From positions 259,099-323,098 of IMG/VR virus record IMGVR_UViG_3300043436_004687: a stretch of 64,000 nt of DNA. One strand, 5' to 3'. The notes under the pieces are model-generated. The model was not told the origin of the DNA and ran no database searches. It worked only from the letters and a program-made list of their open reading frames with translations. Below are positions 2,878 to 63,594 of this stretch, piece by piece. Every line of letters begins with the position of its first letter. Within the stretch, counting starts at the first letter, position 1. This DNA comes from a virus. The translations under genes were made by a program, and so were the position numbers.

Positions 2878-3222
2878 CTATTTAGCTGAAATATTTTTGC
2901 TTAATTTACCATTATTTTTCAAGTTGCCTTTATACCAGTCATTTATAACTTGTTTTAAAAAATCTTTATTTAAACCATTAAATTTATGATTGAGATATTC
3001 ATATAAATCTTTAGGTGTAATCACTTCATTATTAACTTTCTTAGAAATCATGGGTGTGTTATAAAATTCGTGACCAATCTCATGTGTTCCAGTAGCTGGT
3101 TCATAATTTAAATCTAAATCCGTTACTATTGATTTTAAAATATTGTCTTGAACTTTATTTTCTTTTATTAAATTGACAATTAATTTTAATTGGTTTTCGT
3201 TAATTATAATTTTCTTTCCCAT
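2878..3222 (-). CDS. Hypothetical protein (114 aa) with IIINENQ N-terminus
   Basis: It starts MGKKIIINENQLKLIV, an N-terminus that recurs in small proteins of large phages. The middle contains THEIGHEFYNTP. The HEIGH segment resembles the HExxH zinc-protease signature, but no downstream metal ligands can be placed with confidence, so no enzyme call is made. The C-terminus is lysine/asparagine-rich. Confidence 0.75.
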   Translation of the reverse strand: MGKKIIINENQLKLIVNLIKENKVQDNILKSIVTDLDLNYEPATGTHEIGHEFYNTPMISKKVNNEVITPKDLYEYLNHKFNGLNKDFLKQVINDWYKGNLKNNGKLSKNISAK

Positions 3223-3242: not shown

Positions 3243-3608
3243 CTATTTTAATTTAGGTTCTGGAGTAATATTTCTTTTAAATAAACCATAACCATCTGAA
3301 GTTAAATATTCAAACCTTTTAGACGATTGTTTTATAGCATATTCATAGTATTTTTTAAAGCCTATTATTGTTTCGGGTTTTATTGCATCAGAAGCACCAT
3401 CTATATTGTCCAATAAACGCCATAAAGCATGTGATATATCTTTATATTGATGTTCGCAAACTGCAACATCTAATTCCCCAACCCATTCAATGTGTTTATC
3501 AGTTTCTCTAGAACCAGTTTGTATTTCTTCATCAAAATCGTTGGCAACAAATGTTTTATTATTTTTGGTATTTAATAAAATTGTTTTACCTGAAATTACT
3601 TTATTCAT
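3243..3608 (-). CDS. Hypothetical protein (121 aa)
   Basis: Soluble, slightly acidic N-terminus and basic C-terminus (FKRNITPEPKLK). No motif recognised. It starts just downstream of the 3' remnant of the gene interrupted by the TnpB element, so it was probably already its operon neighbour before insertion. Confidence 0.75.
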   Translation of the reverse strand: MNKVISGKTILLNTKNNKTFVANDFDEEIQTGSRETDKHIEWVGELDVAVCEHQYKDISHALWRLLDNIDGASDAIKPETIIGFKKYYEYAIKQSSKRFEYLTSDGYGLFKRNITPEPKLK

Positions 3609-3620
3609 AATTAATTATTT

Positions 3621-3668
3621 TTAACATGGGTACCCCTCTCTTAAATTTCCTTGATTATCTGTGTGAAC
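3621..3668 (-). pseudogene. 3' remnant of small secreted-protein gene interrupted by TnpB element
   Basis: Immediately beyond the GTTCAC end of the TnpB element the minus strand reads in frame HTDNQGNLREGYPC then stop. This looks like a true protein C-terminus. Its N-terminal partner is probably the signal-peptide frame at 4924-4998 on the other side of the element. Confidence 0.55.
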
Positions 3669-3790
3669 TACCCACCCCACCAAAGGCGATGAGATGGGCT
3701 TCTTGCACAACGCATAGCCTAATTGCTTACGTTATCGTACAAAGGGTTGTTCCTAACCCCAAAATTCTTTATGTTATATGCAGCGTTTAA
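3643..3790 (-). ncRNA. Putative omega RNA (reRNA) scaffold and guide of TnpB
   Basis: The 3' part of tnpB and the bases after it contain a GC-rich, foldable segment (minus strand AAGCCCATCTCATCGCC then GGTGGGGTGGGTAGTTCAC, ending at 3663). This matches the usual end of IS200/IS605 right-end elements and their guide RNAs. By analogy with known TnpB systems, the next 16-20 nt (3662 downward, starting ACAGATAATCAAGG) would be the guide. The 5' boundary is only approximate. Confidence 0.65.
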
Positions 3791-4837
3791 ATCTCTATCT
3801 ATTGAATTACCACACTTATCACAATTGTAAGTTCTATCTGAAAGTTTTAAATCTTTCTTATGGTTTCCACAATTAGAACATATCTTACTGCTTGGTTTAA
3901 ACCTACCAATTACAACAAGATTTTTACCTTGCCACTCAGCCTTATATTCCAACATAGTCCTTAATTGCCTCCAACCCATTTCAGCTATTGCTTTAGCTAA
4001 ATTATGGTTCTTTACCATATTACTAACTGCTAAATCCTCTAATACAATTGTATCATACGTGTTTACTAATTCAGTAGATATTTTATGCAAATAGTCAGTC
4101 CTTTGGTTACGGATTTTCTCTTGCAGTAATGCCACTACTAATTTTTGTTTTTCTCTATTTTTTGAGCCTTTCCGTTTTCTTGCAAGGCTTCTCTGTTCAA
4201 TTCTTAATCTTTTCTGTTGGGATTTAAAAAAGTTTTTATTTTCATATACTACACCATCAGAAGTAATTGCCAAATCTTTAATTCCAAAATCAACACCAAT
4301 AGTTGTGCTTTCTTTAATTGGGGTTTTAATTGGGGTTTCATTATTAGTATCGACTAATAATGAAACAAAATATTTACCAGTTACGGTTTTAGTTAATGTA
4401 ACTCTTTTAGTTAATCCCTTAAAATTTCTATGATAATCAATAGCAACATCCTTTAACTTTGGTAATTTTAAAATGTTGTTATCAAAATCAACATCAAAAC
4501 CTTGTGGAAATGTAATTGACTGTTTAGAATATCTATTCTTGTATTTAGGGAACTGACCTTTACCTTTAAAAAAGTTTTGATACGCTGTATCTAAATTGAT
4601 AATACTATGCTGTAAAACTTGACTTGGACATTCTTTAATATAATCAAACTCATTTCTTAATTCTGGAAGTTGTTTAATTAAATCATATTTAGATATTGAT
4701 GTTTTATTTGAAGCATACGCAACAGTCTTGGTTTCTAAACCAAGATTATATACCAACCTATTCACACCAAAATACCTTTGTAATTGGTCTTTTTGGTCAT
4801 CCGTTGGGAATATTCTATATTTGTATCCTTTAAGCAT
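3719..4837 (-). CDS. tnpB: TnpB, RNA-guided nuclease of IS200/IS605-type element
   Basis: 372 aa, normal TnpB length. N-terminal OrfB helix-turn-helix-like start (LKGYKYRIFPTDDQKDQL). RuvC-like catalytic residues appear intact: D183 in IGVDFGIKDLA, E267 in IVLEDLAVSNM, and D347/D349 in IDRDLNAAYNI. A zinc ribbon has C320, C323, C339 and C342. TnpB cleaves DNA next to a transposon-adjacent motif, guided by an RNA from the element's right end. There is no tnpA beside it, so it is an orphan. It interrupts a small secreted-protein gene (remnants at 4924 and 3621). Classification is secure; activity is inferred from the intact residues. Confidence 0.95.
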   Translation of the reverse strand: MLKGYKYRIFPTDDQKDQLQRYFGVNRLVYNLGLETKTVAYASNKTSISKYDLIKQLPELRNEFDYIKECPSQVLQHSIINLDTAYQNFFKGKGQFPKYKNRYSKQSITFPQGFDVDFDNNILKLPKLKDVAIDYHRNFKGLTKRVTLTKTVTGKYFVSLLVDTNNETPIKTPIKESTTIGVDFGIKDLAITSDGVVYENKNFFKSQQKRLRIEQRSLARKRKGSKNREKQKLVVALLQEKIRNQRTDYLHKISTELVNTYDTIVLEDLAVSNMVKNHNLAKAIAEMGWRQLRTMLEYKAEWQGKNLVVIGRFKPSSKICSNCGNHKKDLKLSDRTYNCDKCGNSIDRDLNAAYNIKNFGVRNNPLYDNVSN

Positions 4838-4923
4838 ATATTATTAAATAATCTAAACTTTTGTAAAAGTACTATATTTTTATCTAAATTACAAGTTTTG
4901 GTTAAAATAATTCCTTTAAATCT

Positions 4924-4998
4924 CTATATCTTATTTATATTTTGACTGAAACTTAATGTATTTAATAGAAATAAAAACCCTAAAATTAATTTTTTCAT
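4924..4998 (-). pseudogene. 5' remnant of secreted-protein gene (signal peptide)
   Basis: The 24-residue frame MKKLILGFLFLLNTLSFSQ is a textbook Bacteroidota signal peptide (KK, hydrophobic core, SFSQ cleavage site) that stops shortly afterwards. It lies upstream of the TnpB element in the same orientation as the C-terminal remnant at 3621-3668. The likeliest reading is one short secreted-protein gene split by the insertion. Confidence 0.6.
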
Positions 4999-5061
4999 AT
5001 TCTTTAATAATATTGGTATTATTTCTTTGACAAATCTTGCCTTAGACCCCATATACTTCAT

Positions 5062-5385
5062 TTACAACAAACTATTTAATTTCAAATTTAAAGTATCATA
5101 ACTCTGAACGCCAACCATTCTATCAACAACTACACCATCTTTAAAAAATAATAAAGCTGGGATGTTCCTAACTCCATTAGCTGATGCAAACTCTTTTGAC
5201 TCATCAACATTCATCTTGATGATTAAAACATTATCATCTTTATTTTCATTAGCTAACTTATCAATAGTTGGTGATAACATTCTACAGGGTCCACACCATG
5301 TAGCATGAAAATCAATTAACATTACCTTACCGTTTTCTTTTTCCAATGTTTCATTTACATTAGAATCATTTAATTCTAAAACCAT
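5062..5385 (-). CDS. trxA: Thioredoxin
   Basis: 107 aa, the usual single-domain length. It has the thioredoxin fold signature with the redox site WCGPC at residues 30-34, a KMNVDESKEFASANGVRNIPALLFF block with the cis-proline loop, and the C-terminal G in KDGVVVDRMVG. It reduces protein disulfides in the cytoplasm. In phages, thioredoxins can serve ribonucleotide reductase or the replisome, but no such partner is in this window. The start codon directly follows a run of 15 AAAT repeats, which may affect expression. Confidence 0.95.
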   Translation of the reverse strand: MVLELNDSNVNETLEKENGKVMLIDFHATWCGPCRMLSPTIDKLANENKDDNVLIIKMNVDESKEFASANGVRNIPALLFFKDGVVVDRMVGVQSYDTLNLKLNSLL

Positions 5386-5445
<60 letters not shown>

Positions 5446-5464: not shown

Positions 5465-5677
5465 TTAATGAATTGGGAAAATATTTTCATCAAACCCAAA
5501 TATTTCCTCTATTTTAAGTGTTATAAATCTAATTGTAAGATAATCATCATCAATTAAATTATTCTCAAATAAATCACACATATAGCCACACCCAATTTTA
5601 TAATCCTTAAATTTTTCATGTTGCCTTAATTGATATTTACATATCCTATCAATTTCAATAAAAAATGATTTATACAA
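5465..5677 (-). CDS. Hypothetical protein, FKDY-GC family, copy 1 (70 aa)
   Basis: Paralogue of the next gene upstream (5682-5996). Both carry FKDY-x2-GC-x-Y followed by a helical segment ending in an L/IE-x-IFG motif. The pair is adjacent with a 4-nt gap, pointing to a local duplication. No signal or membrane segment. Function unknown. Confidence 0.75.
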   Translation of the reverse strand: MYKSFFIEIDRICKYQLRQHEKFKDYKIGCGYMCDLFENNLIDDDYLTIRFITLKIEEIFGFDENIFPIH

Positions 5678-5681
5678 TTTA

Positions 5682-5996
5682 TTAATTATTTAGATTGTTT
5701 ATCACATATTTACCAAAATAACCTCTAATTTCTTTCATTGGTGAATAATATGTTTCATAATGCTTCTCCATAAAATATCTATCAACATATTCAATAGTTA
5801 TATCTATTTCTAGACCAAAGATAGGTTCTAATTTGATTATAATAGCTTCTATTAAATGATATATACCATTAGTGTTATTAACAGATAAATAATTGTGAAT
5901 ATAATTACAACCAGCAATATAATCTTTGAAATTAGACTTTTGTTTCAAAACTTCAATTGAAATATCTGCTATGACCATAAAAAATTGAATGATCAA
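5682..5996 (-). CDS. Hypothetical protein, FKDY-GC family, copy 2 (104 aa)
   Basis: Longer paralogue of 5465-5677, with FKDYIAGCNYIHNYL in the middle and a C-terminal extension (EKHYETYYSPMKEIRGYFGKY). It lies 4 nt upstream of its paralogue and 9 nt downstream of 6006-6242, so all three are one transcript. Confidence 0.75.
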   Translation of the reverse strand: MIIQFFMVIADISIEVLKQKSNFKDYIAGCNYIHNYLSVNNTNGIYHLIEAIIIKLEPIFGLEIDITIEYVDRYFMEKHYETYYSPMKEIRGYFGKYVINNLNN

Positions 5997-13737: not shown

Positions 13738-14862
13738 TTATTTATTTAAAATTACACCCATTCCATTACAATGTTCACATTCAATAAATGGTTTATTTAT
13801 TTCTTCCATTAGCTCATTTAAATATAAATCAACTTTTTCTTCTAAATCTTTTTGGTTTAACCCATTGATTGGTTTCTGAGTTGGATAATCAGTATACCCT
13901 TCTGGTGATGTTTGAAATATTTTAATTGACCTTGAGTTACGATATCTGGTTTCGTTTCTAGGTCTTCTTTTAGTACCCATAACAACAGAATATGGTATAG
14001 GTTCGTGAGAAATTACTTTTTCAACGGTTAAACAAAAATCATAATCAGAAGTAATTCTAGCATATTTTGGATCTATATTTAATTTAATGTGGTTTCTTAT
14101 TATTTTATAAAATTCTTTCCCAGAAATTGAACAAGGTCTTTCCATATGCAAAGCTGGGTGTGTTGCTAATGCATTTAATAAACTAGGTGTACTAATGTAT
14201 TTAGGTTTTTCAACATAAAAATTATCTTCTTCAGATAATAGTTCTATTTCAAAACTAACCTCTTCTAATTTACCCTCAATTGTGTCTGATTTTAAAACAT
14301 ATAATCCCCTAATATCTGAATCATAATCCATTTCATTAGATGGAATTACTTTAGGTGTTAATTCACTTTCTGGGAAACCCTCTTTTAATTCATATCTAAG
14401 ATTAGTGGTTTGATCAGCACTTTTAGTTTCTACTTTTTTAGGTAAATCCTTTATCCACCAAATACAAAATTGCCATTTAAAAAAGAAAAGATAAAACGCT
14501 GGTGACCATTCTTGCCTAGGTGAATTAAATTTGTCCTTCCAACCTAAACCAAGTTTCTTATAAACTATCGGATAACCTATCTCTAAATAATAATGATTTC
14601 CTAGTAATTTGAAAATTATATTTTTAGTTGTTTTACCCATTGGTAAATTTTTAAATTTTTTAGCATTTCTTAAATGGTCATTAGGCAATTTATCTAAATC
14701 CTCTTGAGATGTTAATTCTAATTTTCTGAATGTTATAATACTTCCATTAAAACTTCTAGGGTAAAAATAAGGTGTTCCATGGGTAATTTCACCTAAATAA
14801 TATTTTTTTATTGGTAATTTAAAAACACCTTTAATTTCTCTTATTAATTTTTTTATTTTCAT
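13738..14862 (-). CDS. Hypothetical protein (374 aa), aromatic core and C-terminal CEHC
   Basis: One of the largest unknown genes. A conserved-looking aromatic region (LGWKDKFNSPRQEWSPAF then FFFKWQFCIWW) lies at about residues 105-140 and matches a protein type seen in other large phages. A C-terminal CEHCNGMG could bind metal with other ligands. No membrane anchor is predicted despite the aromatic stretch. Function unknown. Confidence 0.8.
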   Translation of the reverse strand: MKIKKLIREIKGVFKLPIKKYYLGEITHGTPYFYPRSFNGSIITFRKLELTSQEDLDKLPNDHLRNAKKFKNLPMGKTTKNIIFKLLGNHYYLEIGYPIVYKKLGLGWKDKFNSPRQEWSPAFYLFFFKWQFCIWWIKDLPKKVETKSADQTTNLRYELKEGFPESELTPKVIPSNEMDYDSDIRGLYVLKSDTIEGKLEEVSFEIELLSEEDNFYVEKPKYISTPSLLNALATHPALHMERPCSISGKEFYKIIRNHIKLNIDPKYARITSDYDFCLTVEKVISHEPIPYSVVMGTKRRPRNETRYRNSRSIKIFQTSPEGYTDYPTQKPINGLNQKDLEEKVDLYLNELMEEINKPFIECEHCNGMGVILNK

Positions 14863-56237: not shown

Positions 56238-57458
56238 ATGATATTAGCTGAATCACATATAATAAATAAATCAAATAAACTATATTCTAGTTGTGATTCG
56301 CTATGTTTTAAATCAAAAAACCTATATAATTATGGAATGTATTTAGTTAATAGTGAATACAAATCAAGTGGTAAATATCTATCATATAATGAGTTGGATA
56401 AACTATTAAGAGATTCTAAACAATTTGATTATTTGCAATTAAAACAGAAGGTAGCTCAACAAACCTTAATGTTATTAGATAAAAATTATAAATCCTATTT
56501 TAAAGCATTAAAAAGTTATAATACTAACCCATCTAAATTCACTGGTAAACCACAATTACCTAAGTATTTAAATAAATTAAAAGGTAGGTTTGTAACTACA
56601 TTTACAAACCAAACAATATCTTTAAAAGAATTAAAAAAAGGGTATATTTTATTAAGTGGAACTGATATTAAAATAAAAAGCGATAAACAACCTAAACAAG
56701 TTAGAGTATTACAATTAAATACTGGTAGTTATAAAATTGAAATATTGTATGAAAAACTAGAATATCCATTAACTATAAATGATAACTATTGTGGTATTGA
56801 TTTGGGTTTAGATAATTTAGCTACATGTGTAACTAATACCAAGTTAGACCCATTTATAATAAATGGTAAACCACTTAAATCAATAAACCAATATTATAAT
56901 AAACAATTAGCAAAATATAAGTCTGAATTACCTAAATATAAATTAAATAGTGTAATAAAACAAAAAAATATAAGTAAAAAAATAAGTAAATTAACACATA
57001 AACGGAATTGTAAAATAATGGATTATCTTCATAAAGGTAGTCGATTAATTACAAATAAATTGAAACAAAACGATATTAGTAAAGTTGTAATTGGTCAAAA
57101 TAAAGACTGGAAACAAAATATTAATATTGGCAATAAAAATAATCAAAATTTTGTTTCAATCCCACATAGCAAATTCATTGAATTAATAACCTATAAATGT
57201 AAATTAGAGGGTATTGATGTAATAGTTAGAGAAGAAAGTTATACTAGTAAGTGTAGTTTTTTAGATGGTGAAATTGTGAAAAAACATGATAAATATAAGG
57301 GTAGTAGAGTGAAGAGAGGTTTATTTAAAACTAGTACTGGTTTTAAATGGAATGCTGATTGCAATGGTGCTTGTAATATATTAATAAAGGAAGTTCCAAA
57401 TGCGTATGCTAATGGAATAGAGGGTGTTGTAGTTCACCCATTAAAATATAATTGTTAA
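56238..57458 (+). CDS. tnpB: TnpB-family protein with rearranged catalytic glutamate
   Basis: 406 aa. RuvC-I D188 lies in CGIDLGLDNLA. At the usual RuvC-II site the sequence is VVIGQNKDW with glycine (G286) instead of glutamate. A candidate replacement, E333, lies in VREESYTSK, 47 residues on. The third aspartate D374 is in WNADCNGACNIL. This alternative-glutamate layout is known from eukaryotic Fanzor proteins and a related TnpB subset. The ending (PNAYANGIEGVVVHP) is typical of the IS1341/IS607-like group. No classical four-cysteine ribbon and no transposase gene are seen. A TATTTATAAG motif lies 30 nt upstream. Confidence 0.9.
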   Translation: MILAESHIINKSNKLYSSCDSLCFKSKNLYNYGMYLVNSEYKSSGKYLSYNELDKLLRDSKQFDYLQLKQKVAQQTLMLLDKNYKSYFKALKSYNTNPSKFTGKPQLPKYLNKLKGRFVTTFTNQTISLKELKKGYILLSGTDIKIKSDKQPKQVRVLQLNTGSYKIEILYEKLEYPLTINDNYCGIDLGLDNLATCVTNTKLDPFIINGKPLKSINQYYNKQLAKYKSELPKYKLNSVIKQKNISKKISKLTHKRNCKIMDYLHKGSRLITNKLKQNDISKVVIGQNKDWKQNINIGNKNNQNFVSIPHSKFIELITYKCKLEGIDVIVREESYTSKCSFLDGEIVKKHDKYKGSRVKRGLFKTSTGFKWNADCNGACNILIKEVPNAYANGIEGVVVHPLKYNC

Positions 57459-62769: not shown

Positions 62770-63594
62770 ATGGAAATAAAAATTTATGGGTTAGTTGACC
62801 CAAAAAACAATCAGATTAGATATATAGGTAAAACACAACAACCATTAAAAAGAAGATTAACTCAACATATTTATGATAATGGTTTAAGCAATAAATATAA
62901 ATATAATTGGATAAATAAATTAAAAAATGAAGGTTTAAAACCACAAATAATAGAACTAGAAACTTGTAATGAGGAAAATTGGGTTGAACGAGAAAAATTC
63001 CATATTAAAAATAATAATAATTTGACTAATTTAACAGATGGTGGGGAAAGTGGTTTATTTTTTACTAAAGAAATTATAAAAAAAATATCAGATGGTTTAA
63101 AAAAGAAATGGTTGGAAGAAGGATTTAAAGAAAGTTTTTCATTGAGAATGAAAGAATATTGGTCTGACCCACTAAATAGGGAAGAATCATCAAAAAGAAT
63201 GACTGGTAAAAAAATGCCACTTAGTCACGAAATAAAACAAAGAAATAGAAAACTAAATGAATGGAAAGAAAATAAATATAAAGAAAAAATGTCAATTCAA
63301 AGTAAAAAATTATGGGAAGATAAAGAATATATTGATAAAACATTAAAATTTTTAAAATCTGATGAGCATAAAAAAATGGTAAGTGATAGATTTAAAAATT
63401 GTAAATTAAGTGAAGAACATAAGAAGAAAATGTCAATTTCATCTAAAAATAAAAAACCAGTTATTATTGATGGAGTTGAATTTGAAAGTATTACTGAAGC
63501 ATCTAAGCTTATCCCAATAAATAGAGATAAGCTTAAAGTTAGAATTAAATCAAAACATTTTGTGAATTATAATTACAAAGAAACACCACAATAA
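62770..63594 (+). CDS. GIY-YIG homing endonuclease with NUMOD DNA-binding repeats
   Basis: 274 aa. The GIY-YIG nuclease is at residues 4-35 (IYGLVDP, then RYIGKTQQPLKRRLTQH, with the arginine and a later E57-region glutamate). The middle has NUMOD3-like basic repeats (SEEHKKKMSISSKNKKP and earlier relatives). The end is a NUMOD1 helix-turn-helix (IDGVEFESITEASKLIPINRD). It cuts an unoccupied target allele. It lies between two copies of a C-terminus and overlaps 63573 by 22 nt antisense. TATTTATTAT is 22 nt upstream. Confidence 0.92.
   Translation: MEIKIYGLVDPKNNQIRYIGKTQQPLKRRLTQHIYDNGLSNKYKYNWINKLKNEGLKPQIIELETCNEENWVEREKFHIKNNNNLTNLTDGGESGLFFTKEIIKKISDGLKKKWLEEGFKESFSLRMKEYWSDPLNREESSKRMTGKKMPLSHEIKQRNRKLNEWKENKYKEKMSIQSKKLWEDKEYIDKTLKFLKSDEHKKMVSDRFKNCKLSEEHKKKMSISSKNKKPVIIDGVEFESITEASKLIPINRDKLKVRIKSKHFVNYNYKETPQ

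What the first reader, a model, noticed from the sequence alone, without database searches (positions are those of the whole stretch)
3621..4998. Orphan TnpB splits a small secreted-protein gene, and its guide is that gene
A signal peptide (4924-4998) and a matching C-terminus (HTDNQGNLREGYPC, 3621-3668) lie on opposite sides of the TnpB element. The predicted guide directly after GTTCAC (from 3662) is the coding sequence of the interrupted gene. An omega RNA carrying it would target uninterrupted alleles in co-infecting phages. The element would therefore home like an endonuclease without a TnpA.
Basis: partly seen in the sequence, partly recalled or inferred. Interest (0 to 1): 0.75.

Follow-up and report, generated by a model that had tools for sequence, protein, structure and literature searches.

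The report
Truncated phage TnpB inside zinc-ribbon gene
A giant phage carries a shortened, transposase-less jumping gene whose RNA-guided DNA cutter is still intact and aims at the phage gene it landed in; this is an ordinary member of a known element family, and the gene it interrupts is not the one first proposed.

Summary
The tnpB gene (3719-4837, minus strand) is real, with an intact RuvC triad, purifying selection and a well-formed right end (RE) stopping at GTTCAC (3663). The predicted guide starts at 3662, as stated. It is the last 13 codons of a coding sequence, TDNQGNLREGYPC*.

The pairing with the signal peptide is wrong. Intact homologues of the C-terminus are small zinc-ribbon phage proteins (MxCPYCG...FYTDxxGxLxEGYPC*) with no signal peptide. 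Several read TTTAT|AC.GAY there, so the target-adjacent motif (TAM) inferred from relatives, TTTAT, sits directly before the guide. The N-terminal part of that gene is absent from the genome.

The left side is unrelated debris: a 21-aa start of a D12 methyltransferase fused to an ORF MKKLILGFLFLLNTLSFSQNINKI* that ends in its own stop. Complete relatives carry TnpA and a left-end (LE) hairpin preceded by TTTAT or TTGAT. The window copy has lost LE, TAM and TnpA, and the viral record has no detectable TnpA.

Best reading: a one-end-deleted IS605 remnant with a working-looking TnpB/omegaRNA still programmed against intact zinc-ribbon alleles. Precise homing is weakened because the left flank does not match an empty site. 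New member of a known kind.

The parts
3719..4837 (-). tnpB, 372 aa, RuvC residues D183, E267, D349 and Zn ribbon CxxC/CxxC present
   Evidence: Pfam OrfB_IS605, Cas12f1-like_TNB, HTH_OrfB; aligns end to end with ISDra2 TnpB 8bf8, E 6e-58, catalytic residues matched; dN/dS 0.12-0.15 against five relatives
3663..3702 (-). right-end hairpin GAAGCCCATCTCATC..GGTGGGGTGGGTAGTTCAC, end of the element
   Evidence: Conserved stem with changing stem sequence in relatives; homology to relatives ends here
3663..3800 (-). predicted omegaRNA (reRNA) scaffold, overlapping the 3' end of tnpB
   Evidence: Position by analogy with ISDra2 reRNA (about 150 nt, PMC8612924); fold z = -2.46 against shuffles; no Rfam family matched; transcription not shown
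3643..3662 (-). predicted guide ACAGATAATCAAGGAAATTT (the first 16 nt correspond to the ISDra2 guide length)
   Evidence: Immediately 3' of GTTCAC; guide rule from PMC8612924
3621..3662 (-). last 13 codons plus stop (TDNQGNLREGYPC*) of an interrupted zinc-ribbon gene
   Evidence: Matches the C-terminus of intact homologues in L068, L077, L079, L080, L082, L074, L075
4838..4912 (-). tnpB leader; homology to relatives starts near 4912, so the left end (LE hairpin, TAM, TnpA) is missing
   Evidence: blastn to close relatives starts at query 289-293, about window 4912-4908
4924..4998 (-). short signal-peptide-like ORF MKKLILGFLFLLNTLSFSQNINKI*, not part of the zinc-ribbon gene
   Evidence: own TAG stop before the element
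4999..5061 (-). remnant of a D12-class DNA adenine methyltransferase N-terminus (MKYMGSKARFVKEIIPILLKN)
   Evidence: tblastn to Vibrio phage D12 methyltransferases, 71% identity over 24 aa, E 3e-4; no D12 gene left in the genome

Best explanation
This is a decayed IS605-type insertion in a jumbo phage (host probably Bacteroidota, by the style of its genes; not tested). A TnpA+TnpB element inserted 3' of a TTTAT site inside a small zinc-ribbon gene at ...F-Y|T-D.... A later deletion removed the left end, TnpA, the TAM and the upstream part of the zinc-ribbon gene. It joined the rest to debris of a D12 methyltransferase and a short signal-peptide-like ORF. The tnpB gene, the right-end hairpin and the guide survive. 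TnpB should process its own transcript into an omegaRNA guided by ACAGATAATCAAGGAAAT, and cut DNA carrying TTTAT plus that sequence, meaning intact zinc-ribbon alleles in sibling phages. The host phage is immune because its own TAM and left half are gone. Shown by sequence: anatomy, truncation, gene identity, TAM at the homologous site, selection on tnpB. Inferred: order of events, omegaRNA production, cleavage, any advantage in co-infection.
For: Complete relatives (L008, L016, L017, L024) have a divergent 134-aa TnpA-like gene, LE hairpin GGAGCGTAAAACCC.. and RE ..GTTCAC. In 5 of 5 LE-bearing copies TT[TG]AT sits exactly 5 nt before GGAGCG (background 0.0077 per position). Intact zinc-ribbon homologues place TTTAT directly before the guide-equivalent bases in L068, L077, L079 and L080. 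Only the C-terminal part is found in the phage genome. Catalytic residues and dN/dS 0.12-0.15. RE stem kept while its sequence changes. No TnpA in the record. No other guide match within 3 mismatches has a TTTAT before it.
Against: No exact intact target allele was found. The nearest zinc-ribbon sites match 16 of 20 guide bases. RNA and activity are untested. An assembly chimera at about 4912 cannot be excluded without reads. The TAM preference was inferred from insertion sites, not measured.
Confidence: 0.8

Rival explanations
1. One reading: TnpB splits one small secreted-protein gene, and the element homes into uninterrupted alleles of co-infecting phages by RNA-guided cutting, without TnpA.
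For: Guide is coding sequence beside the RE; TnpB intact; a TnpB-driven gene drive is shown for plasmids (PMC11870625).
Against: Intact homologues of the C-terminus have no signal peptide. The signal ORF ends in its own stop before the element. LE and TAM-side flank are missing.
Confidence: 0.04
2. Intronless-type homing or interference: although the left flank is not cognate, cutting of intact zinc-ribbon alleles is repaired from wider flank homology (for example the thioredoxin gene at 5062-5385 on the left), spreading the element with its debris or simply eliminating rivals. This is a sub-reading of the best explanation about present use.
For: Purifying selection on tnpB; no potential self-target with the TAM; a phage nuclease known to suppress a co-infecting jumbo phage (PMC11620839).
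Against: No related phage available to test exchange; no intact target allele found.
Confidence: 0.25
3. Inert leftover: the truncated element is no longer expressed or used, and the dN/dS signal reflects selection in ancestral complete elements only. Also a sub-reading of the best explanation about present use.
For: One-end deletion; no TnpA; flanks are debris of at least two other genes.
Against: Open 372-codon frame, intact catalytic residues and an RE stem that still pairs through G-U pairs.
Confidence: 0.4
4. Assembly chimera joining an IS605 copy from one genome to this contig at about 4912.
For: Left junction coincides with loss of homology; metagenomic contig.
Against: The right flank also lies in the phage contig; L018, an independent contig, likewise lacks the LE hairpin.
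Confidence: 0.06

Closest known systems
IS605-type elements of IS200/IS605 (ISDra2 and the phage-borne relatives L008, L016, L017, L024)
   Same: TnpB with RuvC DED and Zn ribbon, RE hairpin, guide taken from the flank at the RE, TTTAT/TTGAT target motif
   Different: Window copy lacks TnpA, the LE hairpin and the TAM; it cannot be excised or moved by TnpA
TnpA-less TnpB copies such as L013/L014/L015/L019 and L018 (viral contigs)
   Same: TnpB and RE without TnpA; L018 also lacks the LE hairpin
   Different: L013 and its near-identical contigs keep the LE hairpin and TTTAT; insertion sites differ
Phage homing endonucleases / intron endonuclease gp210 of PhiPA3 (PMC11620839)
   Same: Would cut a rival phage's allele and spare its own genome
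   Different: Protein-guided HNH enzyme in an intron; here RNA-guided, not in an intron, and without matching flanks on both sides
TnpB gene drive of IS200/605 on plasmids (PMC11870625)
   Same: Same nuclease and guide logic, cutting IS-minus copies
   Different: Complete element with both flanks matching; here the left side is lost

Membership tests
TnpB RNA-guided nuclease | RuvC D, E, D plus Zn ribbon in an OrfB_IS605 fold | tested here: met
TnpB RNA-guided nuclease | RE-derived RNA with flank guide | tested here: inconclusive
   RE hairpin conserved; RNA itself not testable here
TnpB RNA-guided nuclease | TAM directly 5' of the guide at the empty site | tested here: inconclusive
   TTTAT|AC.GA in intact homologues L068, L077, L079, L080 and TTKAT at LE of 5 of 5 relatives support it, but these are homologous sites, not the identical allele; L078, L081 and L084 have TTTAC and L082 has TCTAT
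IS605 transposon (autonomous) | TnpA Y1 transposase | tested here: not met
   none in the viral record, PF01797
IS605 transposon (autonomous) | LE hairpin and RE hairpin both present | tested here: not met
   RE present, LE absent
Homing element | both flanks join to an intact allele in relatives | tested here: not met
   Right flank is a zinc-ribbon gene end; left flank is not the same gene
Homing element | biased transfer in co-infection | not testable with these tools
   needs experiment

The most novel reading that the evidence does not exclude
A TnpB that has lost its transposon left end, and so cannot transpose or home precisely, is kept by a jumbo phage as an RNA-guided weapon against sibling phages that carry the intact zinc-ribbon allele, with immunity given by deletion of its own TAM.
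Probability: 0.12. Interest if true: 0.55.

Novelty: new member of a known kind. Interest (0 to 1): 0.2.

Why it matters
It corrects the identity of the interrupted gene, and it shows how the guide plus a family of intact genes recovers the likely original insertion site (TTTAT|ACAGAT) even after half of the site is deleted. Phages carrying TnpB copies without TnpA, with working-looking guides against sibling alleles, are natural test cases for RNA-guided interference or homing between phages. This single locus does not prove it.

Tried and rejected
Secreted-gene reconstruction rejected: the signal ORF has its own stop and intact homologues start with CPYC motifs. Searching relatives by the flanking ORF 3243-3608 gave none. 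ORF 990-2114 gave only L062, which has different neighbours. DNA similarity in phages matched only tnpB. The exact C-terminus at protein level has no second copy in IMG/VR. The TAM+guide pattern hit two contigs (L089, L090): one in a long unrelated ORF, the other in a short unrelated frame, so chance. L065-L067 hits to the short C-terminal pattern are a different short ORF. Rfam found nothing. No structure prediction was run, since sequence already places TnpB.

Full report
Setting. The window is bases 259099-323098 of a 339,635-bp viral record, a jumbo-phage-sized IMG/VR contig. It has few relatives: DNA similarity search in phage records matched only tnpB. The nearest relative of a neighbouring ORF is one contig with different gene order.

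The element. tnpB (3719-4837, minus) has Pfam OrfB_IS605, TNB and HTH domains. It aligns over nearly its full length with ISDra2 TnpB 8bf8, E 6e-58, with the RuvC residues in register. Against five relatives at 83-90% protein identity, dN/dS is 0.12-0.15. Fifty-four viral loci carry relatives.

Ends. Comparing close relatives with the window shows what is missing. Complete copies (L008, L016, L017, L024; about 1.79 kb) carry a divergent 134-aa TnpA-like gene upstream, an LE hairpin GGAGCGTAAAACCC...GGGATGTAAGCGAC, and an RE ...GGGTAGTTCAC. The TnpA-like label rests on its position, size and sequence character; it was not run against a family library. In all five LE-bearing copies, TTTAT (or TTGAT in L008) ends exactly 5 nt before GGAGCG. 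The background rate of TTKAT is 0.0077 per position. The window's homology to the relatives with an intact RE ends at 3663-3659, the GTTCAC end. On the left it begins only near 4912, about 75 bp upstream of the start codon. The LE hairpin, TAM and TnpA are therefore gone, and no Y1 transposase is found in the record (the control rings in 5 of 14 genomes). L018 shows an independent LE-less copy, and L013/14/15/19 are TnpA-less copies with LE.

RE and guide. Fourteen RE hairpins from the family keep a strong stem while the stem sequence changes, always followed by GTTCAC. The 139-nt region folds better than shuffles, z -2.46. By the ISDra2 rule (PMC8612924: about 150-nt RNA from the tnpB 3' end and RE, last ~16 nt from the flank), the guide is ACAGATAATCAAGGAAAT.. 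from 3662.

The interrupted gene. The last 13 codons, TDNQGNLREGYPC*, are the C-terminus of a small zinc-ribbon family. A degenerate DNA pattern for this C-terminus hit seven viral and two bacterial-MAG contigs. All nine translate with the FYTDxxGxLxEGYPC* end (F instead of L in L068), and seven show the MxCxxC start; L078 is cut by the locus end, and L084 reads as a short frame without the start. Vibrio phage homologues agree. The family is not named in Pfam or PHROGs at meaningful scores. Four viral homologues have TTTAT immediately before AC.GAY, the exact place where the window's RE begins. The inferred original site is TTTAT|ACAGATAATCAAGG.

The left side. Only the C-terminal piece of the zinc-ribbon gene was found in the record. 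The 45-aa ORF 4924-5061 is a 21-residue D12 methyltransferase start running in frame into MKKLILGFLFLLNTLSFSQNINKI and a TAG stop. No D12 gene remains in the genome.

Mechanism and its limits. Cutting intact zinc-ribbon alleles of sibling phages is the natural prediction for a TnpB with this guide. Such use as a gene drive is shown for complete elements on plasmids (PMC11870625), and a phage nuclease suppressing a co-infecting jumbo phage is known (PMC11620839). Here the left homology of an empty site is gone, so precise homing would need wider flank homology. No allele with the exact guide was found in this gene. The nearest homologous sites match 16 of 20 guide bases. The phage itself has no TAM-flanked match to its guide at up to 3 mismatches. 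I rate inert leftover and interference as the two open readings of its present use.

Verdict. Ordinary IS605 remnant with a corrected target gene; new member of a known kind.

Noticed in passing
window 56238-57458 (+) and L070, L071, L072: At least four further TnpB relatives in the same phage record (41%, 34% and 28% identity to this one; the window's second copy by Pfam), with no TnpA in the record.
   Followed up: partly
window 13738-14862 (-): Gad1 Gabija anti-defence protein, Pfam E 4e-75.
   Followed up: no
window 62770-63594 (+): GIY-YIG domain with I-TevI DNA-binding domain: a protein-guided homing-type nuclease in the same window.
   Followed up: no
window 5387-5443: (TTTA)n tandem run directly upstream of the thioredoxin gene 5062-5385.
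   Followed up: no
window 5465-5677 and 5682-5996: Adjacent paralogous short ORFs, 37% identical.
   Followed up: no
L008, L013, L016 around the LE: The 5 nt between TAM and GGAGCG vary between copies and partly repeat the start of the guide (TGAG/TGAG in L016, AAA/AAA in L008, AC/AC in L013); few cases, perhaps chance.
   Followed up: partly
L018 around 2900-3000: A second LE-less copy sits directly after TTTTTAT behind a long ORF that looks like a baseplate protein; the left junction may keep the TAM.
   Followed up: partly
L011 upstream of tnpA: An inverted tnpB leader and start lies beside the complete copy, suggesting nested or head-to-head insertions.
   Followed up: no
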